Shown: piece by piece, positions 14,354 through 63,895 of the stretch
How positions within the stretch are numbered: the first letter of the stretch is position 1
How the letters are laid out: every line of letters starts with the position of its first letter
From: Fimbriiglobus ruber
GTDB lineage: Bacteria; Planctomycetota; Planctomycetia; Gemmatales; Gemmataceae
DNA length: 64,000 bases
Assembly: GCF_002197845.1 (NCBI RefSeq)
Contig: NZ_NIDE01000020.1
Location: 62,001 to 126,000 of the forward strand
Reading direction: 5' to 3'
Notes under the pieces: model-generated
Told to the model about the DNA's origin: nothing
Databases searched by the model: none
The model's input: the letters and a program-made list of their open reading frames with translations, nothing else
Made by a program: the position numbers and the translations under genes

Positions 14354-14571
14354 ATACATTCTCCGTAGACACGAGCAAGCGGACCGGTCCAAGTCGGATG
14401 ACCAACCTTGGAGTAAATCCGCAGCGGCGACGGGGCATTCATTACGAATAAAAGCTGCGGCCACACTCTGGTTAGCTCCGAAATACGCCTCAAGTCGCCC
14501 GCCGCCGTGGCCCGGAGGGCGGCCGTGAAATCGCCGTATTGGATCGCCGCGATTCGCGGGCCCGTTCTCAC
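14350..14571 (-). pseudogene. Duplicated N-terminal fragment of the downstream glycosyltransferase
   Basis: 73 codons from a GTG at 14571 that shares GTGA with the kinase stop; its stop shares ATGA with the next gene. Its opening RIAAIQYGDFTAALRATAAG clearly parallels RIAAVQHGDFSAAQRSIARG in the following glycosyltransferase, but no donor-binding domain follows. The simplest reading is a paralogous transferase reduced to its first 70 residues by internal deletion, with the reading-frame coupling kept. A small functional peptide cannot be excluded. Confidence 0.6.
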
Positions 14572-17114: not shown

Positions 17115-17309
17115 GTCAATCTTTAGCACGAACTGACGACCGGTGCCGGCAATGTTTGCCGAAACCGCAAATGTTACCTCAATTCGGTTGACGCAAATAA
17201 ACGCAGGTGCGAGTGGGGAATGATCCGGCACCGATGACACGAAGCCGCGATACTGGCGAGGCGGGATGGAGGACGGCGTCCTTGGATCGACCAAAAGATA
17301 AGGACCCGA

Positions 17310-17369
17310 GAATCGAGGCGGGAGAACGTTCCCGATCGTTCCTCCACTTCCTGAATTGGGTCGTGATCC
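17310..17369 (+). repeat. 60-bp direct repeat, copy 1
   Basis: This copy has the core AGAACGTTCCCGATCGTTC followed by CTCCACTTCCTGAAT and is nearly identical to copy 2 at 17705. The core contains the near-palindrome GAACG-TTCCCGAT-CGTTC, so it could bind a dimeric regulator. Only two copies occur in this window. Confidence 0.75.
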
Positions 17370-17704
17370 TACGAGCGGTCCCGACAAGCGGATTCCCCGA
17401 ACGGATCGGACTTCCCCTTCGACCTCAGACAAACCCCGCACACCGGATGGGAGCGCGCCGTGTCCGACCACCAGTCGTGATGCGAAGGGACCACGGAGGT
17501 CACGAATCATGGGTCCGAGGGGGTTTTTGCGCTTTTCGCACCTTTTATCGCGTTTGTTGACGATGGACGGACCAGAACATCCATGCACGGAAAATGGTCG
17601 GCTCAGTGGACCGCGTTCCGTCGTCGGGCATCGACTTGCAGGCGCGGGCCGGGGCCGGTTTTTGCGCGGTCGCGCGTTCGGATCACCGAACGATACATTC
17701 CTGA

Positions 17705-17764
17705 GAATCAAGGCCGAAGAACGTTCCCGATCGTTCCTCCACTTCCTGAATCGGGATGTTATCC
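17705..17764 (+). repeat. 60-bp direct repeat, copy 2
   Basis: This second copy of the 60-base unit lies 20 bases beyond the stop codon of the giant kinase. It has the same length as copy 1, with a handful of substitutions concentrated at the edges. The shared core again contains GAACGTTCCCGATCGTTC. Confidence 0.75.
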
Positions 17765-23700: not shown

Positions 23701-25085
23701 CGACCGCGGTCAGTCTGACGGACGACCAGTTCGTAGTTCTCGACCGCCTCCCCCCGGGTGAGTCGCGGCAGAGGCCACTCGGCGAACGGCAGCGGCGGTC
23801 CGCCCGGAATTGACAGGACGAATGTGTCGGTGAACGTCGACAGGTTCCGGCGGACCTCGTCCAGGCTCGCGTACTCGTGCATCCGTAGGGCCGCGGGGTT
23901 CCAGTCGAGTAGGTTTCCCCCGGCGTCCGACAGGATCACCCCGTCGGCCAGGCTCGTAACCACCGCCCGGAAGCGGGCCAGGCTCCGCTCGGACTCGGCC
24001 CGGGCCGCCCGCAACTCGTTTTCGATCCGCTTCCGCTCGGTGATGTTCGTGTGTGCGACGACGACTCCATCGCTGTGGTGGCCGAGGCGGGTTGCCACCA
24101 TCATGAACCACCGCTGCTCGTCCGGGGAGTGGCACGGGTATTCGATCTCGAACCGGTCCGCCGTACCGGCGATCACCTGTCGGACCCCGGAAGCGGCGAC
24201 CGCCGCTTCCAGGCCGTCGTGGTCCACGCTCTCGTCGCAGACTTGGAGGTAATTCGTCCCGACTCCGGTCCGGGGCGACGGGCCGCGCGGGCCCGGGTTG
24301 TCGGCCGCGAACATCCGCCAAGAGTCGTTGACCGCGACGATGACTCCCGCGGGATCGAGAACCGCGATGTGGGCAGTCATCGAATCGAGCACGCCGCGGG
24401 CGAATATCTCCCGCTCCTGGACCAACTCGGCGGCCCGCTTGCGCTCCGTGATCTCGTGCGAAATGCCGACCAGACCAAGTACCCGGCCGTCGGTGTCGCG
24501 GTATGGTGCCTTGGTCGCGAGGTACGTCCGGGTGACCCCCGCGGCGGTCAACTCCTCTTCCTGTGTGTCGGGCCGTCCGTCCGCCATGACCTGGCGGTCC
24601 CGGGCCATCACCCGGTTGGCGCTTTCCGGGTCGAACAGCGCCGTGTCGTCCCGGCCCAGCACGGCGGCGACCGGCAGTCCGACGAACTGAGCGGCGGCCT
24701 CGTTAAAAAGTAAATACTTACCGGCGCTGTCTTTCACGAAAACGGCGTTGGTCGTATTGTCGGTGACCGCCCGGAGGAGACTGTTGACCCGGTCGACGAC
24801 CCGTAGTTCGCGGCGGACAAGCCAGTAGATCAGAGCCGCGGAGATGAGAACGAAGACCGATCCTTTGCCGGTCGCTGCCCAGAAGCCGGACTCAGTTCCG
24901 ACCGGCAGCCAAAACAGGACGCGGTCCGTGAACCAGACCCATGCAAGCCCGAATACCGTGTACAAGCCCACGACCCGGAGGAGCGTCCCGCGGTACGCGC
25001 CCGGTGGTCGCCCGGCGACCGGGTCTTGAGAGAGCCGGGCCGGGACATCGCGGCGAAGTTCGTTGGGCATGACGTCACTCAACAC
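17784..25085 (-). CDS. Giant multi-PAS hybrid histidine kinase
   Basis: 2433 residues (GTG 25085; ATG 25070 is an alternative). Two membrane helices lie at about 32-58 and 70-90. I count about fourteen PAS modules, nine before and five after a GAF domain (about 1265-1385), each ending in a DxTERKR-like linker. The kinase core has a HisKA-type [10 protein letters not shown] with His near 2072, an HATPase with [11 protein letters not shown] and GTGLGLAVV, and a C-terminal receiver with [13 protein letters not shown], Asp near 2365. The combination suggests integration of many small-molecule or redox signals. Its output regulator is not encoded next to it. The length is exceptional even for planctomycetes. 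Confidence 0.93.
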
Positions 25086-46315: not shown

Positions 46316-47126
46316 AGATTTCTTCGACTGGGATTAGAATAAATTTGGACTCTGTGCCACTCTGTGCCGACCAACGTAAAGACGTTCCTCCTTGGAACCT
46401 ATCGAATATAACACAACCTAAATTCTGGTATGAGAAGAGGTTACAACTGATAACTACAAAGTGTGGGAAGCAGTGCGAGCCGGTGGGGACACGCCGTGAT
46501 TAGCAGTTCGACGATACGCGATCACCACCCTACTCCTTCCAGTGGTGTCGGACGTTCGTCCCCGATAGCTTATCGCCTTTCGGCGTCACTGCGTTCATCA
46601 CCAAGCCCTCATCAAGCAGGTCGGCCAGTCGAACGCTTGCTCAACGCTTTTCGGCGTCACTGCGTTCATCACGATGAGGGCCGTATTCAAGGTGACGAGC
46701 CGGCCAAGGTGCTCAACGCCTTTCGGCGTCACTGCGTTCATCACTCCGGACGCCAGGCGCTGGCGGCCTCGCTCGGGGCGTGCTCAACGCCTTTCGGCGT
46801 CACTGCGTTCATCACCTGGCCGATCTGGTCGCGGCGCGGGAGGCCGAGTGCTCAACGCCTTTCGGCGTCACTGCGTTCATCACGTCTCGTGGCGGTCCGG
46901 GCGGCCCGCGATATGATGTGCTCAACGCCTTTCGGCGTCACTGCGTTCATCACTCGAACCCCTGCATCGGGAGCACGAGGACCTGGACGTGCTCAACGCC
47001 TTTCGGCGTCACTGCGTTCATCACCGCGACCCGCCTGAACATCGCGGCCTCCGGCACCCAGGTGTGCTCAACGCCTTTCGGCGTCACTGCGTTCATCACG
47101 AATGCTGCATCGGCCCTTGTGCCCTA

Positions 47127-48354
47127 GTGGGCCTGGCCAGAAGTCGTGAAACAAATTCAGTGCGCATGTTTAGCGAACCACAGCCGCATCTTCGCGTTAG
47201 TCCAAGTCCACTCGAACGGGTGGGCGTAGCGCCGGTTGTACTCCGGGCCGGAGGCCAGCACATGGTCGATGAACGCGGCCCGATCGCCCCAGGAACCTCG
47301 CTTCAGGTAGTGACCACCGAACGCCCCGACCAACATCTCGGCTTGGTTCAACCAAGAGGCGTGAGCGGGTGTCAGCCGAGGTCGCCACCACGTTCCGCAT
47401 CCCGCCAAGTACTCTTGCGTGTCGCCGGCCGTGTGGGTCGGATCGCCATCGTGGATCAGGAATACGCCCCTCAGCCCCTGGTGCCGACGGCGGAACGCCT
47501 TCAACGCACGGATGTAGTGTTCGGCATCTTTCGTGTCCTCAACCGCCACTTCCATCCGACCGGTATGAACGATCAGGAACAACAGGAGGCTGACTGTCCC
47601 GTGTCGAGTGTACTCGAATTCTTCCTGCTCAATCGCGCCGGGGATCGCTCGCCGGATCGGGTCGCGTTCCAGACCTGGAGGTTGGGCATCTCGTCGACCG
47701 CCACCGTCCAGATGCCTCGGTCGGCTAATTCCCAGGCATTCCCATAGCACCAGAGCACCTTCTCGGCTCGCTCCTTGAAGGTCGCGTCGAGCCGAGCCGT
47801 TCGCCAGTACCGGGTGCGGTGCGGTTGCAAGTCTACGTCGCTCAGGATTCTCCGGATCGTCCGTGGGCTGATGGCTTCGACGATCCCGTCGGTCACCGCT
47901 TGGCGGGCCAGATCCCGACTGGTCCAGTGGGTGATGTGCAACCCCTTGGCGACCGGTTCCAAGCAGGCCAACTTGACGATTTGGGCACGTTGGAGGGGGG
48001 AAATCTCCTGTGGCCGCCCTACCCGTGGGTCGTCCGACAGGAGTGAGGGCAGTCCACCGTCCGCATACCAGCGACACACCCTCCAGACGGTGGAGCGACT
48101 ACACCCCAACCGAGCGACGAGATCCCGGACCCGATCTCCACCCGCGAGGGCCAAGATGATCCGCGCGTGTTGAACTTGATACCAAGCCAATCGTCTGCTT
48201 TGGGCAACGGCTTCCAGAATGGGGCGATCAACAGGGGAGAGCATCACGGGCGAGGGCTTACGACCACGCATGGCAGTACCCCAGGAGCCGATAAGGGCGC
48301 AGGGCCAGCATACCCTCTCCGCGAATTCGTTTCACGACTTCTGGCCAGGCCCAC
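47127..48354 (-). mobile_element. IS630-family insertion sequence inside a CRISPR spacer
   Basis: A 1228-bp element with near-perfect inverted ends beginning GTGGGCCTGGCCAGAAGTCG, flanked by TA duplications (47125-47126, 48355-48356) as expected for IS630. Removing it and one TA restores a 35-base spacer between the repeats at 47064 and 48365. Confidence 0.92.
47157..48271 (-). pseudogene. IS630 transposase, one frameshift
   Basis: The N-terminal helix-turn-helix part (DLVARLGCSRSTVWRVCRWY) and the first catalytic Asp (WTVAVDEMPNLQV) lie in one frame starting at ATG 48271. The remainder, with FLIHDGDPTH and the late Glu in SWLNQAEMLVG, lies in another frame ending at 47157. The break is at 47671-47675, where one extra C would restore LQVLERDPIRRAIPGAIEQ. 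IS630 members sometimes use frameshifting, but no slippery A run is present here. It is probably inactive. Confidence 0.85.
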
Positions 48355-48639
48355 TAGAGAAGCAGTGCTCAACGCCTTTCGGCGTCACTGCGTTCATCAC
48401 AGTAGCGCACGAAGTCTTTCAACACGGAGGCGAAGTGTGCTCAACGCCTTTCGGCGTCACTGCGTTCATCACGAACGCGAGCGACAACTGCGGCGGCGGG
48501 CCGACCGCGTGCTCAACGCCTTTCGGCGTCACTGCGTACATCACCCTGTAAGACCTGATAATGTTAATTTCCTTGAGACAGTGCTCAACGCCTTTCGGCG
48601 TCACTGCGTTCATCACGTTCAATGACGGACACCTGCTAA

Positions 48640-49569
48640 GAAACCATCTCAGAAAGTATAATGTACCAGGGCAGGAGGTTACGGGAAATCGCGGAGCGAG
48701 TGTATGACGGCGGACAGAGAATCGATCCTTCCGACGATCTGGGAGGTATCCGATGATTTATGGGCGAGGATCGAACCGATCCTTGCGGCGGCCTGGCCTC
48801 GGCGAGACCCCGTGGTCGGCATCACGCGGATTGGCGTAGGTGCCTGAACGGGATCATCTACCAGATGCGGACCGGGTGCCAATGGAATGCGTTGCCCAAG
48901 GTGCTGGGTGACGACAGCACGGTTCACCGTTGGTATCAACGCTGGTGTCGCTTGGGTGTGATGGAAAAGATCTGGGCGGATCTGGTCCAGACATGTGATG
49001 ATCTGGGGCAAGTCCATTGGGACTGGCAGAGCGCTGACGGGTGCATGGGGAAGGCCCGTCACGGCGGCGACCACATCGGCAAAAACCCAACGGATCGAGG
49101 GAAAAACGGGACGAAGCGGAGCATCGTGGTGGACGAACAGGGTGGACCACTGGGGGTGGTCATTGACGGGGCGAATCGACACGATGCGAAGTTATTGAAG
49201 GCGACGATCGAGGCGATCGTCATCGAGCGGCCGGATCCCAAAGAACACGAGCAACATCTGTGTTTGGATAAAGCGTACGATAATCCGTCCGGCCAGTCTG
49301 CGGCGAGTGAGGCCCAATACACCCCTCACATCCGCCGAATCGGCGAGGAGAAGACAACGGTCACGGCCAAGCACCCGGATGGCAAGCCGCGTCGTTGGGT
49401 GGTTGAGCGTACCCTGAGTTGGCTGAATCGTTGCCGAGCCATCTTGGTCCGTTATGCAAAAAACGGAAAGAATTATTTGGGCTTAGTCCAGTTAGCGTGT
49501 TCCTTGATCTGGTATCGTAGACTCTTCCGCCTCAATGGGTTAGGTTGACGCCTATTTTGAGATGGTTTC
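48640..49569 (+). mobile_element. IS5-family insertion sequence inside a CRISPR spacer
   Basis: A 930-bp element with inverted ends GAAACCATCTCA, flanked by TAA direct repeats (48637-48639, 49570-49572), which fits the short TNA targets of IS5-type elements. Excision would restore a 34-base spacer between the repeats at 48581 and 49584. Confidence 0.92.
48704..49548 (+). pseudogene. IS5 transposase, one frameshift
   Basis: The N-terminus starts at ATG 48704 (TADRESILPTIWEVSDDLWA) and runs out of frame. The body (RRCLNGIIYQMRTGCQWNAL, QSADGCMGKARHGGDH, DKAYD, VERTLSWLNRCRAILVRY) is in the next frame and ends at 49548. One extra C in the CCCC run at 48808-48811 would give the expected RRDPRGRHHADWRR. 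The DDE residues all lie in the second frame, where an internal ATG at 48760 could start a shortened product. It is probably inactive. Confidence 0.85.
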
Positions 49570-49904
49570 TAAGCCCGTGGGAAGTGCTCAACGCCTTTCG
49601 GCGTCACTGCGTTCATCACCCGGGGGTGCCGTATGGAAGCCCATCCAAGCAACCGGTGCTCAACGCCTTTCGGCGTCACTGCGTTCATCACGACGTGAAG
49701 CACCATCCCGGCTACGGCGGCACCATGTGCTCAACGCCTTTCGGCGTCACTGCGTTCATCACACGACCGTCCAGTCGGACACTTCCATCTTGTCGAGTGC
49801 TCAACGCCTTTCGGCGTCACTGCGTTCATCACGTACGCACTGGTCGGGGCCTGGGATTGAAACACAGGGTGCTCAACGCCTTTCGGCGTCACTGCGTTCA
49901 TCAC

Positions 49905-50768
49905 CTTCTGGTACTCGGTCCACGAGATATCCCGGCCACCGTGCTCAACGCCTTTCGGCGTCACTGCGTTCATCACTCGAACTCCACGTATTCGGGCTCA
50001 CTCATCGCGCAGTGCTCAACGCCTTTCGGCGTCACTGCGTTCATCACCGCGATCAGCTCCGCCATCAGCCCAACCAGGTCCGGGTGCTCAACGCCTTTCG
50101 GCGTCACTGCGTTCATCACGGAGCGTACGTCGTGGTCGACGACCTGGACCCCGGGTGCTCAACGCCTTTCGGCGTCACTGCGTTCATCACGCAGTAGCGG
50201 CCGATCTCCTCGGACTTCTCCGGCTGCTTGTGCTCAACGCCTTTCGGCGTCACTGCGTTCATCACGCCCGGCCGACGGTCGGGGTCGGCGGCGCCGTTGG
50301 GTGCTCAACGCCTTTCGGCGTCACTGCGTTCATCACCGAGCAAGTCGCATCCACAAAAAGACCGGTTGCGAGTGCTCAACGCCTTTCGGCGTCACTGCGT
50401 TCATCACGGGAACGGGGCGCCGCCGTAAGGTGCCCCGCAGACGTGCTCAACGCCTTTCGGCGTCACTGCGTTCATCACCCGGCCCCGCGACCCGAACGCC
50501 GAGACCGTCGAGGGTGCTCAACGCCTTTCGGCGTCACTGCGTTCATCACGACGACGCGAAAGACCTGGCCGCGGCGTCCCGGCAGTGCTCAACGCCTTTC
50601 GGCGTCACTGCGTTCATCACGTAGTCGGCCGCTGGCGGGGCCGAGGCGGCGACCCCCACGAGTGCTCAACGCCTTTCGGCGTCACTGCGTTCATCACGAG
50701 AAAAAACTACTCATTGAACTCCTCGACCGCGAGTGCTCAACGCCTTTCGGCGTCACTGCGTTCATCAC
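49905..50768. repeat. Spacer block that was duplicated to 55485-55990 (original copy)
   Basis: Spacers starting at 49905, 49977, 50048, 50479, 50550, 50621 and 50698 reappear in the same order at 55485-55990. Five further spacers (50120-50442) lie inside this copy only. Confidence 0.9.
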
Positions 50769-53700
50769 GACGCGTGGGTGAGTTTATCCTGACCCTTCGG
50801 GGTGTGCTCAACGCCTTTCGGCGTCACTGCGTTCATCACGCGAAAAGTGGCTCAAGGAAATGTGGGCCGTGACCGCGTGCTCAACGCCTTTCGGCGTCAC
50901 TGCGTTCATCACTTTAGTGGTGATTTGCACGAGATCACTCCCCCAACTGTGCTCAACGCCTTTCGGCGTCACTGCGTTCATCACGACCCATGGAAACAAC
51001 ACGATATCGGCCGATTGGATGTGCTCAACGCCTTTCGGCGTCACTGCGTTCATCACGGTCCAATAGCTCTCTGGCTTTCGCGCGCTCATCGTGCTCAACG
51101 CCTTTCGGCGTCACTGCGTTCATCACGGCACCGGAGCAGTTCGTCAGCCGGGTCGGGGCAAAGTGCTCAACGCCTTTCGGCGTCACTGCGTTCATCACGT
51201 CGTCGAGCCCGGCCACGTCCAGTTCCGCGGGTGGCGTGATCAACGCCTTTCGGCGTCACTGCGTTCATCACGTCGCGGCCGACGCGTGGCAGGCGGTGTT
51301 GCAGAAGTGATCAACGCCTTTCGGCGTCACTGCGTTCATCACGCCCCGGGGCCGTCCCCCGCGAGGTGGTCGACGCGTGCTCAACGCCTTTCGGCGTCAC
51401 TGCGTTCATCACGCGGCGGTGGCGGACATCATCGCCCTGGTCGGGGAGTGCTCAACGCCTTTCGGCGTCACTGCGTTCATCACACCGTCCATTTGTCGTT
51501 CGTCACCTTGCTCACTATGTGATCAACGCCTTTCGGCGTCACTGCGTTCATCACATTGCTCCAGCTGTGAGAGTGTCAGACCCACGTTGTGATCAACGCC
51601 TTTCGGCGTCACTGCGTTCATCACAGTGCCACGTCCAACCCGCTCGTCGCCCAACAGGAGTGATCAACGCCTTTCGGCGTCACTGCGTTCATCACTTTCA
51701 ACAGCAAACTAGTTTCACACCAATTCTCGAAGTGATCAACGCCTTTCGGCGTCACTGCGTTCATCACTCGCTCCAGACGGACGCTCGATCATTGTAGAAG
51801 TTGTGATCAACGCCTTTCGGCGTCACTGCGTTCATCACGCGTTTGAACTTGAAGCACTCGCGGGGCATTTCGTCGTGATCAACGCCTTTCGGCGTCACTG
51901 CGTTCATCACTCACGCTTAAATCGTGGATCACCATCGCCGATGAAGTGATCAACGCCTTTCGGCGTCACTGCGTTCATCACAGAGTGGAGCGGAGACATT
52001 GGCCAGAGTGGAGCAGAGTGATCAACGCCTTTCGGCGTCACTGCGTTCATCACCGCTTGGGAATCTTGTGCTGTAACGGACCCACATAGTGATCAACGCC
52101 TTTCGGCGTCACTGCGTTCATCACAATATCCTCGGCATTAGACGTAATATAATCCGCAGGTGATCAACGCCTTTCGGCGTCACTGCGTTCATCACCTTGT
52201 CGCCGAAGCTATCAGCACCCTTCTTCGCGGGGTGATCAACGCCTTTCGGCGTCACTGCGTTCATCACGCAAACGATAGCGTTCATCGTGCTGATTTTAAC
52301 AGTGTGCTCAACGCCTTTCGGCGTCACTGCGTTCATCACGAGCAGTTGGTCTACGCGGCGAACCCGAGCGAGATGTGATCAACGCCTTTCGGCGTCACTG
52401 CGTTCATCACCTCGACCCCGAACGCCTCTTCCAGCACGGCCAGGATGTGATCAACGCCTTTCGGCGTCACTGCGTTCATCACTCTTTTTCACCCACCATC
52501 TTTACGAGGTCTGACTAGTGATCAACGCCTTTCGGCGTCACTGCGTTCATCACGCCCCAAAGCCCCTTGCAAGGACAGGTTCTTCGCGTGATCAACGCCT
52601 TTCGGCGTCACTGCGTTCATCACCCAGAGCGACGGCCGCCCGTCGTCCCGCGGCTCGTGTGATCAACGCCTTTCGGCGTCACTGCGTTCATCACTCCTTC
52701 CACCCGAGAGAGAGTCCGAATGAGCCTCGAGTGATCAACGCCTTTCGGCGTCACTGCGTTCATCACGGTGTGGCGTTTCGGCTGCTCGGCAAGCTGACGG
52801 AGTGATCAACGCCTTTCGGCGTCACTGCGTTCATCACGCCGGTTCGGTCCAATCCCACCCCCCGAAACTCAGGTGTGATCAACGCCTTTCGGCGTCACTG
52901 CGTTCATCACCCCGACAACGCCTACCTGGGCACCATCCTCAACACGTGATCAACGCCTTTCGGCGTCACTGCGTTCATCACGGGATCGAGGCGGTCATGC
53001 CCCTCGACCTGTACCTGTGATCAACGCCTTTCGGCGTCACTGCGTTCATCACGTCCGATCCATTCCTTGTCCAGGGCGTCCTGGTCGAGTGATCAACGCC
53101 TTTCGGCGTCACTGCGTTCATCACTCTTGTGCTGCCTTCAAGTCAGCAGCACGAGCGTGTGATCAACGCCTTTCGGCGTCACTGCGTTCATCACGGGACG
53201 AATTCCGCAACTCGGATCCCATTGCGGAGTGATCAACGCCTTTCGGCGTCACTGCGTTCATCACCATGAGGGCCAGAACGCGACGGAGCAGCAGCTATTG
53301 TGATCAACGCCTTTCGGCGTCACTGCGTTCATCACACCACCGACCGCCGCTTTCGCTTCCGAGCTGCCGCGTGATCAACGCCTTTCGGCGTCACTGCGTT
53401 CATCACACCGCCAGCCTGACGTACCCCGTTGGTTCGGACGCGTGATCAACGCCTTTCGGCGTCACTGCGTTCATCACAATCCACTAGCGGGACAGCGACC
53501 GGGCAAAGAACGTGATCAACGCCTTTCGGCGTCACTGCGTTCATCACACCGGCGGATCGAATTGGCCGGTCTGGAGATCCAGTGATCAACGCCTTTCGGC
53601 GTCACTGCGTTCATCACCACGTTGCCGCTGGGCTCGGTCATACCACAGACGTGTGATCAACGCCTTTCGGCGTCACTGCGTTCATCACATCACTCGCTTC

Positions 53701-55484
53701 CGAATCAGCGTGTTGAGGAACCAGTGATCAACGCCTTTCGGCGTCACTGCGTTCATCACCCGCCGTCGGAACCCAATTCCCGCCCGATGCCAAAGCGTGA
53801 TCAACGCCTTTCGGCGTCACTGCGTTCATCACAATTGGGACAGGTGGGGCAGTCGGTACGATCACGGCGTGATCAACGCCTTTCGGCGTCACTGCGTTCA
53901 TCACCCCGTACCGAACCCGCCGACTCCAGCGGCCGGCAGGTGATCAACGCCTTTCGGCGTCACTGCGTTCATCACACGGTGTAGCCTTCCTTCGACTTCT
54001 GACGAACCAAATGTGATCAACGCCTTTCGGCGTCACTGCGTTCATCACGGTCACACCGAGCTGGATATGACGAGGCGGTACTTGGTGATCAACGCCTTTC
54101 GGCGTCACTGCGTTCATCACGGATACACCAGTCCACTTCCAGCCGTGCCCGTGGCTGTGATCAACGCCTTTCGGCGTCACTGCGTTCATCACACGGCCGG
54201 GGAACTTGCGCTCGAGCCACCAGATCAGGTGATCAACGCCTTTCGGCGTCACTGCGTTCATCACCGTATACTACTGGCTTAGTCGACAAGGTGGATGTGT
54301 GTGATCAACGCCTTTCGGCGTCACTGCGTTCATCACGTTAGGCGTGCAGTTGGACATAAACGTGAAACCCAGCGTGATCAACGCCTTTCGGCGTCACTGC
54401 GTTCATCACATCGTGATCCCGTTCAACCGGCACGGGCCGTCGCCCAGTGATCAACGCCTTTCGGCGTCACTGCGTTCATCACGTCATCACCTTCTGGGCA
54501 GCCGAATTTGTGCCAAAGGTGATCAACGCCTTTCGGCGTCACTGCGTTCATCACACGGCACGATGACCGGCTTCTCCCGCTCGTAAAGGTGATCAACGCC
54601 TTTCGGCGTCACTGCGTTCATCACTCTTCCTCTTCTTCGTCTTCCCCGCCATCGTCGTGTGATCAACGCCTTTCGGCGTCACTGCGTTCATCACCTGATC
54701 GATGACGACGCGTTGGAAGTTCTCAAAGCGGCGTGATCAACGCCTTTCGGCGTCACTGCGTTCATCACTCTCACCAGTCCGGAACGGGATAAGTGGGAGG
54801 CTTGTGATCAACGCCTTTCGGCGTCACTGCGTTCATCACCTCTTGATCCCTGCCGGAACCTGTTGCCACGTATACGCGTGATCAACGCCTTTCGGCGTCA
54901 CTGCGTTCATCACCGGGCCGCGTCGTGGACTGGACCTGTACCCGTGAGGTGATCAACGCCTTTCGGCGTCACTGCGTTCATCACAATGCCTTGCGGAACG
55001 GCACCCGCGCGGCCGTCCCGTGATCAACGCCTTTCGGCGTCACTGCGTTCATCACGCTGCGTAGTCGGCCAAGAGTTGCCGGATTTTGATGTGATCAACG
55101 CCTTTCGGCGTCACTGCGTTCATCACCTTGCCGCTGCAAACCCTATGAGCGCCGAGACCGTGTGATCAACGCCTTTCGGCGTCACTGCGTTCATCACATT
55201 CGGTCGATGCTCGTCGGTTTTTGGGGGGGGGTTGTGATCAACGCCTTTCGGCGTCACTGCGTTCATCACGTTAGCGTAATCCGAAAGCCGTCGATAATCC
55301 ACCAGTGATCAACGCCTTTCGGCGTCACTGCGTTCATCACAAAGCGGCATTAATCACGGACGGTGCCTTAGATATGTGATCAACGCCTTTCGGCGTCACT
55401 GCGTTCATCACTTCACTACCGGCCAGTCGTACCCTCGCCCGTTCATCTGTGATCAACGCCTTTCGGCGTCACTGCGTTCATCAC

Positions 55485-55990
55485 CTTCTGGTACTCGGTC
55501 CACGAGATATCCCGGCCACCGTGCTCAACGCCTTTCGGCGTCACTGCGTTCATCACTCGAACTCCACGTATTCGGGCTCACTCATCGCGCAGTGCTCAAC
55601 GCCTTTCGGCGTCACTGCGTTCATCACCGCGATCAGCTCCGCCATCAGCCCAACCAGGTCCGGGTGCTCAACGCCTTTCGGCGTCACTGCGTTCATCACC
55701 CCGGCCCCGCGACCCGAACGCCGAGACCGTCGAGGGTGCTCAACGCCTTTCGGCGTCACTGCGTTCATCACGACGACGCGAAAGACCTGGCCGCGGCGTC
55801 CCGGCAGTGCTCAACGCCTTTCGGCGTCACTGCGTTCATCACGTAGTCGGCCGCTGGCGGGGCCGAGGCGGCGACCCCCACGAGTGCTCAACGCCTTTCG
55901 GCGTCACTGCGTTCATCACGAGAAAAAACTACTCATTGAACTCCTCGACCGCGAGTGCTCAACGCCTTTCGGCGTCACTGCGTTCATCAC
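55485..55990. repeat. Duplicated spacer block within the CRISPR array (condensed copy)
   Basis: Seven spacers identical to those of 49905-50768 stand here consecutively, separated by GTGCTC-type repeats in a neighbourhood of GTGATC-type repeats. At the joint the fourth spacer has one extra C, which marks the point where five spacers are absent. Confidence 0.9.
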
Positions 55991-58429
55991 AACGCGACAG
56001 CCGTCAGTGCCAAAGCAAAACGCTTGTGATCAACGCCTTTCGGCGTCACTGCGTTCATCACCTGTAACCCGGCCAGCTCTTGCGCTTCCCGGGCCGGTGA
56101 TCAACGCCTTTCGGCGTCACTGCGTTCATCACCAGTACCAGGAAGGTGCTGCGTGTCCTGGTGTGTGGTGATCAACGCCTTTCGGCGTCACTGCGTTCAT
56201 CACCGCACTCAACGGAACATTAACGCGACAAGGCTATTGTGATCAACGCCTTTCGGCGTCACTGCGTTCATCACGGGATCAAACCGCTGCTGACCGCCCA
56301 CCCGGTCACGTGATCAACGCCTTTCGGCGTCACTGCGTTCATCACCCAGTACACGCACTACCTGATTACGTGGTCCTACGAGTGCTCAACGCCTTTCGGC
56401 GTCACTGCGTTCATCACGGTGATCATCTCGGCTTTCCATCGCCCAGCTTCGTGTGATCAACGCCTTTCGGCGTCACTGCGTTCATCACAACGCTCGTCTC
56501 GCCGGCCTGATCGATTGGGATGCGTGATCAACGCCTTTCGGCGTCACTGCGTTCATCACTCGCGTGACGGCGTTCGGCCAGTTCTTCGACCAAGTGCTCA
56601 ACGCCTTTCGGCGTCACTGCGTTCATCACGGGGCGATGAGGGGGCCAGCCTGACCGGGTACTAGAGTGCTCAACGCCTTTCGGCGTCACTGCGTTCATCA
56701 CCGGCTGGGCGGCAAGGGGAAGCGGGGGAAGATCGGGTGCTCAACGCCTTTCGGCGTCACTGCGTTCATCACACTGACTTCCAATGGCGTACAGCGCGTT
56801 TCCGCCACGTGTGCTCAACGCCTTTCGGCGTCACTGCGTTCATCACGGGCAAACGCGAACAGAACGGATAGCGGCGGGGGGTGCTCAACGCCTTTCGGCG
56901 TCACTGCGTTCATCACGAAAACAGCGAGCATGTCGGTGTCGCGACTCACAAGTGCTCAACGCCTTTCGGCGTCACTGCGTTCATCACGTCCTCGTACGTC
57001 CCGCCGCAAACGAACGACGTGTGTGCTCAACGCCTTTCGGCGTCACTGCGTTCATCACCCTCCACCAACCGTTGGCCACTGGCCCGGAGGCGGAGTGCTC
57101 AACGCCTTTCGGCGTCACTGCGTTCATCACCCCTGGGCGTACGCTACCATGACCTTGCGATCGAGGTGCTCAACGCCTTTCGGCGTCACTGCGTTCATCA
57201 CTTGACTCGCGGTAATAGCCGCGTCGGCGGTGTCCCGTGCTCAACGCCTTTCGGCGTCACTGCGTTCATCACACCGTATCACCGAACTGAAAGCCAGTTC
57301 TAACGGTGGGTGCTCAACGCCTTTCGGCGTCACTGCGTTCATCACACTCAGTTCCTGCGAAACGCGATCCTGCCGGCTGAAGTGCTCAACGCCTTTCGGC
57401 GTCACTGCGTTCATCACCCGTCGATGAAGTTCGCGGCGGCCCGGCCGACCGGCCCGTGCTCAACGCCTTTCGGCGTCACTGCGTTCATCACGGGGCACTT
57501 GCCCCGGTTTTTTTGTCCGGGTAGGTGTGCTCAACGCCTTTCGGCGTCACTGCGTTCATCACCCCGCGATCAACACGCCCGGCAACGGGTCGGGCATGTG
57601 CTCAACGCCTTTCGGCGTCACTGCGTTCATCACACTGGGTGAGGAGTTGCGGCGACTGTTCACGGTACATGTGCTCAACGCCTTTCGGCGTCACTGCGTT
57701 CATCACACCGCCGTCGCGCTCCCGCACATGATCCACTGGAGGTGCTCAACGCCTTTCGGCGTCACTGCGTTCATCACGGTGGCGAAGTGACGCCAGAGGC
57801 CAGCATGTCACCTGTGCTCAACGCCTTTCGGCGTCACTGCGTTCATCACTTTCGAGCAAAATCCCGCCCCCGGTGTCGACCTTGGTGCTCAACGCCTTTC
57901 GGCGTCACTGCGTTCATCACCATGTTGGCCGGGTCAACGGCGACGATCAGCACCGGGTAACCTACGTGTGCTCAACGCCTTTCGGCGTCACTGCGTTCAT
58001 CACATCATTTCCGCTGTCTGGCGATGCACCATCCACGAGTGCTCAACGCCTTTCGGCGTCACTGCGTTCATCACAAGGAGGTTGAAACGTGCAAGACGAC
58101 GGCAAGCTGTGCTCAACGCCTTTCGGCGTCACTGCGTTCATCACGGGGCACCCTACGTTCGCGAGGAAGCGAGTCGGTGGTGCTCAACGCCTTTCGGCGT
58201 CACTGCGTTCATCACAAGACCAACGCCGTCGCTCCTGCCCGCGACCACGCGTGCTCAACGCCTTTCGGCGTCACTGCGTTCATCACGTGGTGTAACCGCC
58301 GGCGCCGCCGGTGAGGGTGTTGTGCTCAACGCCTTTCGGCGTCACTGCGTTCATCACCATTCCGACAGACCGGCAGATGAACGACCTGTCCGTGTGCTCA
58401 ACGCCTTTCGGCGTCACTGCGTTCATCAC

Positions 58430-58678
58430 CGCACACGTTACAAACTCTGGCCCTGTAACGAATTATCCCACCTCCTTTCAAGGTTCCCGATGCCACAGCC
58501 TCGGGAAGTCCATTCAGCAACCGGCTTCGGGGCCGTTTCCCTGAAAAATAAGGGTATTTCGTCGATCATGCACCGACATACGTTGTCAAAGATCGGTAGC
58601 CCGGCCTCGGGGCATGGGTTAGGGCCGGTTGGCCCCGTTCTGTCCGTCGACACGCGTCGGTGCGTGATTCGGTCGCCG
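58430..58678 (-). promoter_or_regulatory. CRISPR leader
   Basis: This gap of about 250 bases between the last perfect repeat and the cas2 stop has A/T-rich segments such as TTATTTTTCAGGG on the minus strand. It is placed where a leader is expected if the array is read on the minus strand, away from cas2. The leader boundaries and promoter boxes could not be fixed. Confidence 0.6.
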
Positions 58679-58978
58679 CTAGACGATTTCGTGCCGCGGC
58701 GGCCGGTCCGTCCACTCCGGCGGGCGTTCGCTCCCGTGGATCCCCACGATACCGTCCACACACGTCCCGCACAACGGGATGAGCATCACGTCGTCATCGC
58801 GGTCCAGCCGTTCGGTCAGCTCCCAGCGGAGCCGTTCCACTTCCCGACCGGTCAGCCAGCACCGGAACACCGAATACTGGACCCGGTGGCCATACCCCTC
58901 CATGTGCTTCGCGCACTTTCGCAGCCGGTCGGGGTTGTGGACGTCGTAGCACACCAGCCACCACTTGGCGTCGGACAC
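58679..58978 (-). CDS. cas2: CRISPR-associated endoribonuclease-fold protein Cas2
   Basis: 99 residues, normal for Cas2. The N-terminal beta strand with the conserved Asp (WWLVCYDVHNPDRL) is followed by VQYSVFRCWLTGREVERLRW and the strand VMLIPLCGTC. It would dimerise and bridge two Cas1 dimers in the spacer-integration complex. The ATG lies 16 bases after the cas4-cas1 stop, so it is the last gene of the operon. The leader and array follow directly. Confidence 0.95.
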   Translation of the reverse strand: MSDAKWWLVCYDVHNPDRLRKCAKHMEGYGHRVQYSVFRCWLTGREVERLRWELTERLDRDDDVMLIPLCGTCVDGIVGIHGSERPPEWTDRPPRHEIV

Positions 58979-58994
58979 GGGACCACCTCACGGG

Positions 58995-60656
58995 TCAGCG
59001 TAAGCGACTGCGGGCGAACAGGCCCGGTTCGCCCGTCCACTCCTTCTCCAAAAACCGCGCCTCCAACTCAATTGTCCGCGCGTAACTCAACGAATAGTTC
59101 AACACCGGGTGCTTCCACGTCTCCTGCAACCGGCCCTCGAACAACCCGATCGTCTTCTTCCGGCCCGCGTCCGACAGCCACACCTTCGCCCGCGTGACCG
59201 TGAAGTCGGCCGCCGGATCCCACTGGCCCCGGTTCAGCGACCCCACCACCGGCATGTCACACAACGTTACCCGGAATAACTCCATCAAATCGAGGACGAG
59301 CGGGTAAGCGGCCGACCGCGGGGTGTGGAAGAACCCGAGCGCCGGCTCCAAACCGGACGCCAGGACCGCCCGCATCACCGCCGTGTGCAACAAGCCGTAC
59401 CCGTAGCTCAGGAGCGCGTTGAACCGGTCCTGCGGCGGCCGTCGGGACCGGCTGTCGGCCCGCAGTTCGTCGGGCACCTGCGGGCCGAGCAGCGTCCGCA
59501 GGGCGGCGAAATAATGGACGGCCGCCGCCCCCTCCAACCCGCGGAGGGAGTCGCGGTCGGCCGCGTCCGGGATGCGACCGAGGAGCGGTTGAATGCCGTT
59601 CAGCGACGTTTGAATCTCGCCGCGAGCCTCGTCGTCCCCCCGGCTCGCCCGCATGAGATACCGGTACTGGCCCTCGACCTTGGCCGCCGCGAGCTGTTTG
59701 GCGAGCCGCAGACACGTGGCGTCGTCCGCCAGCGCCTGGTACTGGCGGACCCGCCGCTGGACCTGGCCGGCCGTCGGCACGAGACTGGCCGTGTGGTGCC
59801 CGCTAACGCTCAGCCAGTGGACACCGATGCCGTGCTCGACGCATTTGCGGACCGCCTGGGTGGTGATCTGGCTGAACCCGTGGAGGAGCACGGTGTCGAC
59901 GCTCCGGGCCGGGTGCTTGCTTTCCGGCCCCTCCCGCGGGCGGAGGACCAGGGTGTCCGCGCTGATGCCGACCTGGGTGCCCTGGGCCACGACGTGGAGG
60001 GTGGTGCCGTCGCGGTCGGGCGGGAACAGGCGGACCGGCTCCCGCTCCGGTTCGCGGTCCTGCCGCACCTCCTCGGGCAGGCAGACCGGGGCGAGCGAAC
60101 ACTTTTCGCACAATCGCGGGTTGTCGGTGATCGGCGGGCGGTCGAGGGTTTCGCGGAGCCGGCGGGCGTCGGCGATGGCGGCCGTCAGGTCGGCCCGGGC
60201 CCGGTCGTCGACGGGGACGCGGACGGTGACGTTGGCCGCGTGGTAGCGGACGCGGCCCTCCGGGATCGGCTGCCCGAACGCCTCTTCGAGCAGCACGGCG
60301 TACGCGACCAGTTGGAGCCGGTCCGACGGCCACACTTGCGGGGTGTCATCGGCGGCGCGGCCGGGCTTGCCGCGCTTGTGTTCGTACGGCAGGTACGACC
60401 CGTCGCGGCGGCGGACGCAATCGACCTTACCGAGGAGGCCGAGGGTTTCGCTGGCGAGTTCGAGGGCGACGGTCTCGCCTTCTTCGTCGGCTTCGAGGGC
60501 GGCGTGGAGTTGCCGGCCGGCGAACACCCGGTGGTCGGCGACGCGGATTTCCTCGACCTCTTCGAGGTAAAAGAGCCGCCGGCAGTACGCGAGGGCGTGC
60601 AGGGCCATGACCCGCACCGGCGGCCGGTGCGAGCCGAGGACGGGGAGCGGAAGCAT
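58995..60656 (-). CDS. cas4-cas1: Cas4-Cas1 fusion protein
   Basis: 553 residues. The Cas4 part (about 1-195) has a first Cys in LAYCRRLFYLEE, the nuclease core GKVDCVRR and YEHKRGK, and the iron-sulfur cluster cysteines in CEKCSLAPVC. The Cas1 part (about 220-553) has GLEGAAAVHYF with the metal Glu, the His in ALGFFHTP and the acidic LDLMELFR. All catalytic residues are present. Cas4 selects and trims prespacers next to the right motif, and Cas1 integrates them with Cas2; fusion links the two steps. The ATG is 12 bases after the cas5 stop. Confidence 0.95.
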   Translation of the reverse strand: MLPLPVLGSHRPPVRVMALHALAYCRRLFYLEEVEEIRVADHRVFAGRQLHAALEADEEGETVALELASETLGLLGKVDCVRRRDGSYLPYEHKRGKPGRAADDTPQVWPSDRLQLVAYAVLLEEAFGQPIPEGRVRYHAANVTVRVPVDDRARADLTAAIADARRLRETLDRPPITDNPRLCEKCSLAPVCLPEEVRQDREPEREPVRLFPPDRDGTTLHVVAQGTQVGISADTLVLRPREGPESKHPARSVDTVLLHGFSQITTQAVRKCVEHGIGVHWLSVSGHHTASLVPTAGQVQRRVRQYQALADDATCLRLAKQLAAAKVEGQYRYLMRASRGDDEARGEIQTSLNGIQPLLGRIPDAADRDSLRGLEGAAAVHYFAALRTLLGPQVPDELRADSRSRRPPQDRFNALLSYGYGLLHTAVMRAVLASGLEPALGFFHTPRSAAYPLVLDLMELFRVTLCDMPVVGSLNRGQWDPAADFTVTRAKVWLSDAGRKKTIGLFEGRLQETWKHPVLNYSLSYARTIELEARFLEKEWTGEPGLFARSRLR

Positions 60657-60668
60657 GAGGACTCCGGT

Positions 60669-61316
60669 CTAAGGACTGTGATGAATGATGGGTAATCGGT
60701 CGGCCGACGGGGGCGTCGGCAGAGTCATCTCTTCGAGACTGCCAGTCGCGTACCGCGTCCCAGCCGAGCCGACGTGATCGACCCAGACAGGAAGCGATAA
60801 CCGACCCTTCGGGGCGAGCAGGAACGCACGCCCGACTTGACCACTGATGCTGTCGGCCTTCTTCCCTTCGAGGAGCGAAACTTCGTCGACGAGGTGGGTG
60901 CTTTCGCCGAGCGACAGCCCGCCGAACCGGTTCACGGAACTGGGATGGGTGAAGGCAGCGCGCACACGGGCTTCTAGAGTCGGCTCCGTCCCCGACTCGG
61001 CCGACGAGTCCAACCACACGACCAGTTTCACGTCCGTGAGAAGTTGCTGGTAATCGGGCCGAGTGTTCCCGGGCGACCCGAGCGGCATCTTCTTCACCCG
61101 CCAGACCGTGCGAAGCACCACGCTCGTCGGCGGCTTGTTCAGTAAGACCGGGGCGACTCGCGCACCCACATGTCGGCGACGGTCCGTCTCCCCGACGAAC
61201 GAGAGTAGGAACCCGTAACAGGTCGCCGGCGGCGGAAGGGGTTCGGTTTCGAGGTATTCACGCGCCATCCCCTTGCGGAAGCAGGCCACGGGAACGGTGA
61301 CGTACACGCCGAGCAC
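60669..61316 (-). CDS. cas5: Cas5, Myxan/DevS-like
   Basis: 215 residues from a GTG at 61316, three bases after the cas7 stop. The N-terminal ferredoxin-like fold reads VYVTVPVACFRKGMAREYLE, with PPPATCYGFLLSFVGE, the pattern of DevS/Cmx5-type Cas5 proteins. A later glycine-rich part (RFGGLSLGESTHLVDEVSLL) fits the thumb-like region. It would hold the 5-prime handle of the crRNA at the foot of Cascade. The last residues (PIIHHSP) are not conserved-looking and may be an extension. Confidence 0.9.
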   Translation of the reverse strand: MLGVYVTVPVACFRKGMAREYLETEPLPPPATCYGFLLSFVGETDRRRHVGARVAPVLLNKPPTSVVLRTVWRVKKMPLGSPGNTRPDYQQLLTDVKLVVWLDSSAESGTEPTLEARVRAAFTHPSSVNRFGGLSLGESTHLVDEVSLLEGKKADSISGQVGRAFLLAPKGRLSLPVWVDHVGSAGTRYATGSLEEMTLPTPPSADRLPIIHHSP

Positions 61317-61319
61317 GGC

Positions 61320-62237
61320 TCACCCCTTGATCTTGAGTTCAGCGGTGATGCGCTTGACGGCCTCTTCGCACGCTTTTTTCACGCCGTACACGGGAACCTG
61401 TCTAGCCTTCAGGTCGGCGGCCAGTTTGCATTCCAGGTCGCTCACGCCGACGATCAATTCTTTCGGGTCGAGATCTTCGGCCGCGAGCCGTTGCAGGAGT
61501 TTCGGCGACACGACCGTTTTGCCGTCGTCGGTCGTATCGAAGCAATAAAGCAGCCGCGGGGCCGGGTCCTGCGTGACGCGAAGGACGACCGCGTCTGGGG
61601 AGAAGTCGAATAGAAATCGGCCGTGGTTGCCGGCGACGGTGCCGAGGTTACAGAGCGCGTCGATGGCTTTCGCGGCCCGCGTCTTATCCCGGAGACGATC
61701 CGGTGTAAGTGCGATCCCATACTGGTAGCGGGTGGCGTGGACTTCCGTGCCGTAGGGAACGGGGTTACTCCCCTTTTTCTGGGCCGATGGCGTAGCCCCC
61801 GGCGAGGCGGCGTTGAAGGTCACATCGCCAGCCCAAGGAGTAAGGGAGACGGCGCGGGTGATTTCGAGCACGGCCCGACGCACAGTCGCAGATCCTTTAC
61901 CGTCATCGCTGCCGTCCTCCTTGGCGGCCTCAGCGATCATGTAGCCGAGCAGGTCGTCGTCCACGAAGGTGACACCCTTCTCGGACGCCCAACCCTTGAA
62001 CTGGTGGTCCTGCCAAACATTGGAGCGCAGGGCTTCGTCCCAGACCCGGTTCGTCTTCTCGGCTGCGCCCAGGCGTCGGCGGAGGGCAAACCGAATCGCC
62101 TCGGCGCTAACGGTGCTGTGCGTTTCTCCTTGCCAAAGAAGCTTCTGAAGAGTGGTAATATTCCCTTCGGTCTCCGCCCGGTTGTTTGCGGCGGTTCCGA
62201 ACGGGGTGACAAAGTTGGCGAACACGTGCAGGCTCAT
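61320..62237 (-). CDS. cas7: Cas7, DevR-like backbone subunit
   Basis: 305 residues from ATG 62237, which has AGGAG a few bases upstream, inside the end of the previous gene. The start MSLHVFANFVTPFGTAANNR, then AETEGNITTLQKL is the typical opening of the Cst2/DevR type of Cas7, with WQGETHSTVSAEAIRFALRR following. GTEVHATRYQYGIALTP is another family segment. Several copies would coat the crRNA spacer. DevR proteins in Myxococcus were first seen as developmental autoregulators, but here the setting is a full CRISPR operon. Confidence 0.93.
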   Translation of the reverse strand: MSLHVFANFVTPFGTAANNRAETEGNITTLQKLLWQGETHSTVSAEAIRFALRRRLGAAEKTNRVWDEALRSNVWQDHQFKGWASEKGVTFVDDDLLGYMIAEAAKEDGSDDGKGSATVRRAVLEITRAVSLTPWAGDVTFNAASPGATPSAQKKGSNPVPYGTEVHATRYQYGIALTPDRLRDKTRAAKAIDALCNLGTVAGNHGRFLFDFSPDAVVLRVTQDPAPRLLYCFDTTDDGKTVVSPKLLQRLAAEDLDPKELIVGVSDLECKLAADLKARQVPVYGVKKACEEAVKRITAELKIKG

Positions 62238-62242
62238 GGACT

Positions 62243-63895
62243 TTACTCCTGATCGGGGGTGGGTTCGGTAGTTTCGGTGCGGTTGCCCTGGTAGCTGCAC
62301 AGCGCGAGGAGGGCCAGATCGCGAGCGTGTTGCCAGTTGTTTTGGCGGAGCATCGGCAGAACATCAGCCCACTGCTTCTGGAGAACCTGGTTGCGACCGG
62401 CACGGCTGAACAAGTCGCACAGAGCACGACGGAACTGGTCAGCAGTCTTTGATCCGGCGAAGGCCAGTCGCCACCGGTCGTACTCGCCGCCGAAGCGGTT
62501 CCGCATGGCAACCGGGTTCTTCTTGTTTTCGTCGGCGATCTGTGCGTAGCGGCCACGCAAGGCTTCGTGGACAGCCTGAACGACGATGCGCTCGCCTGCA
62601 GTGTCCCACATCGTGTCGTCGGCAATCATGGCGTGAAGTCCTCCTCGTTCAAAGGGAAGGCGGTCGCGGAATGGGTTACCCGTGGCCGGATTGATCTTGG
62701 TCATCAGGTCGCGGAAGCCGGCGTACCACGGTCGACCTAGGGCCAGGTTTTCGGCGATCAACGGGCGGACTACACTGTCGGAGCGAAACGACTCACGCCG
62801 CTCCGTGGTCACCTTCTGTTTGCCTCGCCCGGTCGATTCGGAAATCGTTCGAGTCACGATGCGCGTCGGCAGGTGGGTCAGTGCCCGGTCGAAACGGTCG
62901 AGGAGTTTATCGTCCCCCTCGGGAACGGTGATCGTGGCCACCCGCGACTTTTGCTGACTCGCCCAAGGGGTCGGGGTAAAAGTCATGACGTGACAGCTCG
63001 GGATGGCAGTCCCGCGGACAAGTTGTCGCCCCCGGGACTGCATTCGGGCCGCCCGCACCGGATTTCTTCTCAACCGCCACTGAGCTTGTAGCCCGGCATC
63101 GGCGGCGTTCGCGATCTGGCATTGCGCGGCCGTCGAAGGGGTCATCGCCGGGCGGTCGAACACGAAGTCGAGCAAGTTCTGTACGTCCGGCACGAGTAAC
63201 GCCGCCACCCCTCGATTGACCGGCAGGGACAGACAGCCGACGAGAGCGAAGTACAACGGCAACATCCGCTCGGGCACGTCTTCGACCGCTGTGTCGGCGG
63301 TAAACGCGACGTGCCGGACAACGGTCCCGGGACTGATCGGACCGTCGACCTTCATCACGTCACGAACCAGGCACCCTTTCTTGTCCACGAATAACTCCCA
63401 GCCGTCCTGATGTTTGAACCCGGAACATTTCCGGTATTCGACGACGACGCCCGGGACACCTTCTCCTTCCGGATCGTAAATTACCGTCGTCGATTCTTTC
63501 GCCAGTTGCCGCACCTTACCATGTTGCAGAAAAGTCAGCGTTAACCCGGACTGCAAATCCGCGAGAATAGCGGCCGGCGGTTCGATGTCGTATTGCCCGG
63601 GTAAACTGATGAGACCATCCTTCCGCACTGTGAACGCAAACGCGAAAAGCCGCTTCAACAACTCCGCCGCGTTCTCGGGCCGGCCGAACCGCAACGAGAC
63701 CGTCTGTTCGGTCACGTCCCATGCCAGCGCGTCGCCGCCGCTGACCGTGGGCACACGATCTCCTTGCTCACGTTCCATCGCCCTCAGGGTGCAAGCCAGT
63801 CCGCCCAACCCGGCCCGGTGCAAGAGCGACATCCCGGGGCCGAATAGGCCCATTGTCAGGTGGTCCGGCGCGGGCGCTTTGGTCACTTTCGCCAT
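62243..63895 (-). CDS. cas8: Cas8-type large subunit of Myxan family (Cmx8/Cas8a1-like)
   Basis: 550 residues. The opening LTMGLFGPGMSLLHRAGLGG, then LACTLRAME is typical of the Myxan-type large subunit, and position and size agree. PAM recognition and Cas3 recruitment are the expected roles. No zinc knuckle or nuclease motif is evident. The C-terminal 150 residues are helical (YAQIADENKKNPVAMRNRFG and later), where small-subunit functions usually reside. Cmx1 and Cmx8 designations cannot be separated without a profile search. Its ATG lies inside the last 13 bases of the upstream gene. Confidence 0.88.
   Translation of the reverse strand: MAKVTKAPAPDHLTMGLFGPGMSLLHRAGLGGLACTLRAMEREQGDRVPTVSGGDALAWDVTEQTVSLRFGRPENAAELLKRLFAFAFTVRKDGLISLPGQYDIEPPAAILADLQSGLTLTFLQHGKVRQLAKESTTVIYDPEGEGVPGVVVEYRKCSGFKHQDGWELFVDKKGCLVRDVMKVDGPISPGTVVRHVAFTADTAVEDVPERMLPLYFALVGCLSLPVNRGVAALLVPDVQNLLDFVFDRPAMTPSTAAQCQIANAADAGLQAQWRLRRNPVRAARMQSRGRQLVRGTAIPSCHVMTFTPTPWASQQKSRVATITVPEGDDKLLDRFDRALTHLPTRIVTRTISESTGRGKQKVTTERRESFRSDSVVRPLIAENLALGRPWYAGFRDLMTKINPATGNPFRDRLPFERGGLHAMIADDTMWDTAGERIVVQAVHEALRGRYAQIADENKKNPVAMRNRFGGEYDRWRLAFAGSKTADQFRRALCDLFSRAGRNQVLQKQWADVLPMLRQNNWQHARDLALLALCSYQGNRTETTEPTPDQE

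What the first reader, a model, noticed from the sequence alone, without database searches (positions are those of the whole stretch)
51236..56629. Two repeat variants that differ in the predicted crRNA 5-prime handle
Seen: the old end and the new end use GTGCTC repeats, while most repeats from 51236 to 56559 use GTGATC. In the crRNA this changes the handle from TTGAGCAC to TTGATCAC. Known: the handle is held by Cas5 and new repeats copy the leader-proximal one. The switch, the mixed zones (51377, 51448, 52304, 56382) and the return to the first form are not explained by simple copying and imply recombination or gene conversion.
Basis: partly seen in the sequence, partly recalled or inferred. 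Interest (0 to 1): 0.6.

Follow-up and report, generated by a model that had tools for sequence, protein, structure and literature searches.

The report
CRISPR array with two repeat spellings
A long bacterial CRISPR immune-memory array contains two spellings of its repeat that differ by one letter in the part expected to become the guide RNA's handle; one stretch is a copied piece of the old end, and both spellings occur in related systems, so this is mostly a readable record of array rearrangement.

Summary
The array has 136 repeats (46566-58429, minus strand): 70 end GAGCAC, 64 end GATCAC, 2 are degenerate; the forms lie in 11 runs, 68.8 expected. Leader and an intact type I-B (MYXAN) cas operon lie to the right, so the variant is handle position -4. 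Spacers 95-97 and 98-101 repeat old spacers 17-19 and 25-28 (one extra C), five units lost. Of eight other switches, the first (51236) is read as mutation, the rest as recombination or conversion; neither is shown, and duplication/deletion alone rarely restored GTGCTC at the leader end in simulation. The letter is probably tolerated: -4 is G in 11 planctomycete genomes' arrays, G in 2 and T in 5 of 7 cyanobacterial ones, with at least three changes on a Cas4-1 tree. GATCAC is predicted to disturb the Cas6 hairpin, but a relative with 192 identical repeats shows a similarly low prediction. Instructive, mostly ordinary.

The parts
46566..58429 (-). CRISPR array, 136 repeats of 36 nt, crRNA sense on the minus strand; trailer at left, leader at right
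46566..46672 (-). two degenerate trailer-end repeats (numbers 1 and 2)
49873..50768 (-). source block: spacers 17-28, all GTGCTC repeats
55453..55990 (-). copied block: spacers 17-19 and 25-28 again (spacers 95-101), bringing the seven GTGCTC repeats 96-102 into the GTGATC zone; five units missing; one extra C at the repeat/spacer edge near 55700
   Evidence: 250 of 251 positions agree in the first part; the second part (327 against 326 nt) is identical once the extra C is set aside
51236..55484 (-). main GTGATC zone, repeats 36-95 (57 of 60 GTGATC)
51377..51483 (-). GTGCTC repeats 38 and 39 inside the GTGATC zone
52304..52339 (-). single GTGCTC repeat 51
56026..56559 (-). repeats 103-110: seven GTGATC and a single GTGCTC (108, 56382-56417)
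56594..58429 (-). leader-proximal run of 26 GTGCTC repeats (111-136)
58430..58678 (-). leader between cas2 and the first repeat; a TGAAAGGAGGT-like stretch recurs in several relatives' leaders
58679..58978 (-). cas2
   Evidence: Cas2b, 3.7e-41
58995..60656 (-). cas4-cas1 fusion
60669..61316 (-). cas5 (I-B)
61320..62300 (-). cas7 (DevR type)
62243..63895 (-). cas8 (Cas8a1/MYXAN); cas3 overlaps the window's end and cas6 lies beyond it

Best explanation
This is an active-looking type I-B (MYXAN) CRISPR array. The ancestral repeat ends in GAGCAC. At about repeat 36 the leader-proximal repeat changed to GATCAC, and the change was inherited by copying through most of the next 60 acquisitions. Recombination between identical 36-nt repeats later moved GAGCAC units back. 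One case is shown: a block of old spacers 17-28 was copied between spacers 94 and 102 and lost five units. The small islands and the final return at repeat 111 are inferred to come from similar exchange or short-range conversion among repeats, the last one acting on the leader-proximal repeat so that all later repeats copied it. The handle letter (-4 G or U) is inferred to be tolerated by Cas5.
For: Block order and 11 runs against 68.8 expected. Copied spacers in the same order, identical except for one letter of repeat 95, one extra C and a five-unit loss. Both junction repeats carry the letter of their left spacer's unit (95 = A, 102 = C), as expected if crossovers fall in the 32 nt to the right of the variant. 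-4 is G in the arrays of all 11 other planctomycete genomes whose arrays I read, and a 27-base A-form pattern has 0 matches in genome contigs while the non-A pattern has 4, so A is taken as derived (the tool may leave out records of, or very near, the window's own genome). Relative G110 shows spread by copying with another handle change: 113 of 114 repeats end GAGCAG and only the trailer repeat ends GAGCAC. Among 7 cyanobacterial I-B arrays, 2 have G and 5 have T at -4; at least three changes on the Cas4-1 tree. Deecker and Ensminger 2020 (PMC7056967, passages): an array rebuilt from a single remaining last repeat took on that repeat's letter.
Against: The islands at 38-39, 51 and 108 and the return at 111 have no copied spacers, so recombination there is not shown. 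In simulation, duplication and deletion alone gave a GTGCTC leader end plus three or more islands in at most 12 of 1,920 retained runs, and in 0 runs when a plausible number of duplicated spacers was also asked for; no setting of either model met the strictest criteria (24 settings). Leader-biased conversion did better (11 to 446 of 3,000 runs), but without a test of the duplicates. No second strain with this array was found.
Confidence: 0.68

Rival explanations
1. Occasional template choice at acquisition: when a spacer is added, the new leader repeat is copied from, or corrected by, a repeat several units inside rather than always the first. This gives bursts of switching near any boundary between forms.
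For: Leader-biased conversion reproduced a GTGCTC leader end with three or more islands in 11 to 446 of 3,000 runs, more than duplication/deletion (at most 12 of 1,920) or one strain exchange (12 to 24 of 3,000). Switches are bursty (p 0.018 and 0.023). The copied block, if it came first, placed GTGCTC repeats six units from island 108.
Against: Rates were chosen by hand and duplicates were not scored; the p value is modest; no acquisition experiment is known to me (recall) that shows it.
Confidence: 0.25
2. Exchange with another strain's array through the shared repeats, leader and cas genes replaced the leader end and left mixed borders.
For: One crossover explains the run 111-136. Spacers differ slightly in G+C between zones (0.649 old C, 0.597 A, 0.637 new C; uncorrected p 0.03 and 0.07 against A).
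Against: No other genome or viral contig with the A form was found; exchange alone rarely made three islands as well.
Confidence: 0.25
3. Repeated point mutation at one hot site. The repeat ends are a quasi-palindrome (GTGATGAACGC...GCGTTGATCAC) and the A form matches the opposite arm, so a templated mutation could recur there.
For: End-arm complementarity rises from 9 to 10 of 11 with the A form. -4 also changed at least three times among relatives.
Against: Template switching explains C to A, not A to C. By my own arithmetic, eight propagated changes all at one of 36 positions has a chance of about 1e-11 without a hot spot. None of the 103-, 114- or 192-repeat relatives' arrays shows block switching.
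Confidence: 0.12
4. The two handles are functionally different and selected, for example GATCAC lowers crRNA processing, or changing handle escapes repeat-mimicking phage RNAs (Racrs; PMC10651486, seen in a search listing only).
For: Predicted probability of the Cas6 stem falls from 0.996 to 0.108 in the bare repeat and from 0.85 to 0.52 on average over 134 repeats in native context. The five T-handle relatives keep a predicted stem probability of 0.78 to 0.995, so the disturbance is particular to this repeat's 5' end.
Against: Relative G022 has 192 identical repeats with predicted stem probability 0.123, and G041 0.505, so the prediction does not imply loss. A 27-base A-form pattern had no match in viral contigs. 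The energy gap is near 1 kcal/mol.
Confidence: 0.1
5. The copied block is an assembly artefact.
For: The one extra C lies in a run of C, a usual error place; reads were not available.
Against: The five-unit loss and the letter A in repeat 95 are not simple re-use of one sequence; the genome is in 20 contigs, this one 614 kb.
Confidence: 0.07

Closest known systems
Type I-B (MYXAN, Cas8a1/Cmx1 and Cmx8) CRISPR-Cas, e.g. Synechocystis sp. PCC 6714 (PMC11096372, passages) and Nostoc sp. MS1 plasmid systems
   Same: cas gene set and order, Cas4-Cas1 fusion, 36-nt repeat ending GGCGTTGA[G/T]CAC
   Different: in each relative's array that I read the letter at -4 is uniform; here both letters are in one array
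Array segmental duplications and deletions (review PMC8047081; S. agalactiae PMC4466440; M. tuberculosis complex PMC7968741; passages of each)
   Same: blocks of spacers repeated in order, internal losses, spacer variants with one base gained at an end
   Different: here a repeat letter marks the moved block independently of the spacers
Copying of a remaining repeat's letter in a rebuilt type I-F array (Deecker and Ensminger 2020, PMC7056967, passages)
   Same: the letter of the repeat that serves as template spreads through later repeats
   Different: there collapse of the whole array to the last repeat (engineered, and proposed for nature); here switches inside a retained array
Haloferax volcanii type I-B loci with different handle letter at -8 (PMC4326828, passages)
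   Same: natural single-letter handle variants in one cell
   Different: there one letter per locus and at -8; here -4 and within one array

Membership tests
Type I-B (MYXAN) CRISPR-Cas | cas3, cas5, cas6, cas7, cas8a1/MYXAN, cas4-1, cas2 in one operon beside the array | tested here: met
   open reading frames unbroken
Type I-B (MYXAN) CRISPR-Cas | leader next to cas2 and polarised array with degenerate trailer repeat | tested here: met
Type I-B (MYXAN) CRISPR-Cas | 8-nt crRNA handle made by Cas6 | not testable with these tools
   inferred from the conserved 3' end of the repeat in relatives and the 8-nt handle reported for Haloferax I-B
Segmental array duplication | several spacers repeated in the same order elsewhere in the array | tested here: met
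   spacers 95-97 = 17-19 and 98-101 = 25-28 (98 with one extra C)
Gene conversion between repeats | letter changed with flanking spacers kept in place, donor known | tested here: inconclusive
   islands 38-39, 51, 108 lack copied spacers; no ancestral array to compare
Functionally distinct handle variant | different crRNA yield or Cascade binding | not testable with these tools
   only folding predictions

The most novel reading that the evidence does not exclude
The repeat template is not always the first repeat: during spacer addition the new leader repeat is sometimes converted by a nearby inner repeat, so allele boundaries generate bursts of switching, and a duplication that carries old repeats near the leader can reset the handle of all later guide RNAs. 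The GATCAC form, by completing a palindrome that competes with the Cas6 hairpin, would meanwhile lower output from about half of the array.
Probability: 0.15. Interest if true: 0.6.

Novelty: new member of a known kind. Interest (0 to 1): 0.33.

Why it matters
A neutral-looking letter that travels with its neighbouring spacer lets one read rearrangement in a single array without other strains. It makes testable whether new repeats always copy the first repeat, and whether both natural I-B handles work with one Cas5. If only duplication and copying are at work, it is a good teaching example and no more.

Tried and rejected
Random mixing of the forms was rejected. A handle change that breaks an invariant position was my first reading after the planctomycete arrays and the Synechocystis array; the cyanobacterial arrays with GATCAC removed it. 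Duplication and deletion alone as the cause of all switches was tested by simulation and did poorly. Zones with different spacer make-up: only weak G+C differences. Protospacer searches in phages, plasmids and 95 family genomes gave no convincing target: the hits whose query coordinates I compared with the array by eye fell on repeats or on low-complexity or very G+C-rich stretches, and the rest were not examined one by one; so no PAM was derived. The first 400-odd bases and the last repeat were outside one or other of the 8-kb queries. Avoidance of TGATCA as a restriction site: 9 seen, 4.8 expected in the window outside the array, so no avoidance. A second array at contig 20:7103-7420 is a short decayed relic; the copies I read there have no GTGATC form. 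Literature searches on mixed repeat forms inside one array listed no paper whose title or abstract start describes it; I read passages of only some listed papers, and the library lacks most subscription papers.

Full report
What is there. The window holds a CRISPR array of 136 repeats from 46566 to 58429. Counted by their last twelve bases in the crRNA sense, 70 end GGCGTTGAGCAC (69 standard and one, number 11, with another single change), 64 end GGCGTTGATCAC, and two at the left end are degenerate. The window lies in a 12.36 Mb genome of 20 contigs. The tool places relative G041 in the same family, and its array contigs match records titled Gemmataceae, so the host is taken to be a member of the Gemmataceae (inference).

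Direction. Reading from outside towards the array on the minus strand: cas6, cas3, cas8 (Cas8a1/MYXAN), cas7, cas5, cas4-cas1, cas2, then a 249-base leader, then the array. The degenerate repeats are at the other end. So the right end is new, the left end old, and the crRNA repeat is GTGATGAACGCAGTGACGCCGAAAGGCGTTGA[G/T]CAC. The variant is the fourth base before the spacer. I did not measure crRNA ends; the handle is inferred from conservation and from the I-B literature (PMC11096372 passages; PMC4326828 passages).

Is the pattern more than chance? Yes: 11 runs against 68.8 expected, z = -10 (the two degenerate repeats were counted as C). Forms in order from the old end: C35, A2, C2, A11, C1, A44, C7, A5, C1, A2, C26.

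The run of seven C repeats (55521-55990) sits inside a copied block. Spacers 95, 96, 97 equal 17, 18, 19; spacer 98 equals 25 with one extra C; 99, 100, 101 equal 26, 27, 28. Spacers 20-24 are missing from the copy. The first part agrees at 250 of 251 positions, the only difference being the variant letter of repeat 95; the second agrees exactly once the extra C is set aside. So two of the ten switches are explained by duplication. The letters at both junctions fit crossovers within the repeat to the right of the variant, so that the letter travels with the spacer on its left. Because repeat 103 is again A, the block was most likely placed internally and not at the then leader end (inference).

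Eight switches remain; the first (35 to 36) I read as the original mutation. Copied spacers are absent at 38-39, 51 and 108 and at the return at 111. I simulated polar copying with one mutation. Duplication and deletion alone gave a C run of at least 10 at the leader end and at least three islands in at most 12 of 1,920 retained runs over 12 settings, and in none with 4-14 duplicated spacers as well; with conversion between repeats, up to 168 of 2,998 (up to 9 of 3,000 with the duplicates); no setting of the 24 met the strictest criteria. A version in which the new repeat is sometimes set by a repeat a few units inside gave both features in 11 to 446 of 3,000 runs; a single exchange with a C-form sister array gave 12 to 24 of 3,000 (duplicates not scored). 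Switches are bursty, p = 0.018 to 0.023. These are plausibility checks with hand-chosen rates. Eight independent propagated mutations at one of 36 positions would have a chance near 1e-11 without a hot spot (my arithmetic).

Which form is older? A 27-base A-form pattern had no match in genome contigs or viral contigs; the non-A pattern matched four contigs, all titled Gemmataceae. The tool warns that records of, or very near, the window's own genome may be left out. In the 11 other planctomycete genomes whose arrays I read (G022, G026, G041, G044, G050, G052, G069, G104, G110, G200, G297), -4 is G; three further loci, G057, G123 and G401, showed no array in the stretch taken. So C is taken as ancestral here.

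Does the letter matter? In seven cyanobacterial plasmid systems found by Cas4-1 similarity, the handle ends GAGCAC in two (Synechocystis PCC 6714, NIES-970), GATCAC in four (Nostoc MS1, S. elongatus UTEX 3055, Gloeothece, Cylindrospermopsis) and GTTCAC in one (Nostoc CENA543). On an 18-row Cas4-1 tree the letter changed at least three times, with the window's own row left uncounted; which changes are gains and which losses is open. Both letters also occur within each of the two effector groups that Cas5 similarity suggests. So Cas5 of this family most likely tolerates both. I found no direct binding data for -4.

The five relatives with T at -4 keep a predicted stem probability of 0.78 to 0.995. 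Against a strong reading: relative G022, with 192 identical repeats, has a predicted stem probability of 0.123, and G041 0.505, and energies differ by about 1 kcal/mol. It remains a prediction.

A useful parallel. In relative G110, 113 of 114 repeats end GAGCAG and only the trailer repeat ends GAGCAC. A handle change therefore seems to have spread by copying there too. In the 13 relatives' array stretches examined for identical spacers, only G022 (one pair) and Nostoc MS1 (one neighbouring pair) had any.

Known ground. Duplications and losses of spacer blocks are well described (PMC8047081, PMC4466440, PMC7968741; passages). That an array rebuilt from one remaining repeat takes on its letter was shown after an engineered array deletion in a type I-F system; collapse by recombination in nature is those authors' model (PMC7056967; passages). 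Handle-letter differences between loci of one cell are known in Haloferax (PMC4326828; passages). My searches listed no paper whose title or abstract start describes two handle forms alternating in blocks within one array, but the library is partial.

Verdict. Recombination is shown for one block and inferred for the rest. The handle difference is probably tolerated. New member of a known kind, of modest interest, with one testable question: whether new repeats always copy the first repeat.

Noticed in passing
47100-48364 and 48617-49583: Two inserts carrying transposase genes (DDE_3; IS4/5-type DUF4096 and DDE_Tnp_1) interrupt the old part of the array after repeats 8 and 12.
   Followed up: partly
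57921-57967: Spacer 129 is 47 nt long, against 32-41 for the other spacers that contain no insert.
   Followed up: no
contig 20:7103-7420 (outside the window; L010): Short decayed relic array of the same repeat family, on the opposite strand.
   Followed up: partly
[quoted passage not shown]
   Followed up: no
17784-25085: 2433-aa histidine kinase with many PAS domains, beside another hybrid kinase at 14568-17711.
   Followed up: no
L074 (Nostoc sp. MS1 plasmid): Array with many repeat variants in its leader-distal half, none in the last 12 bases; a natural comparison for repeat-form mixing.
   Followed up: no
L080 (relative G110): Handle letter at -1 is G in 113 of 114 repeats and C only in the trailer repeat.
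   Followed up: partly
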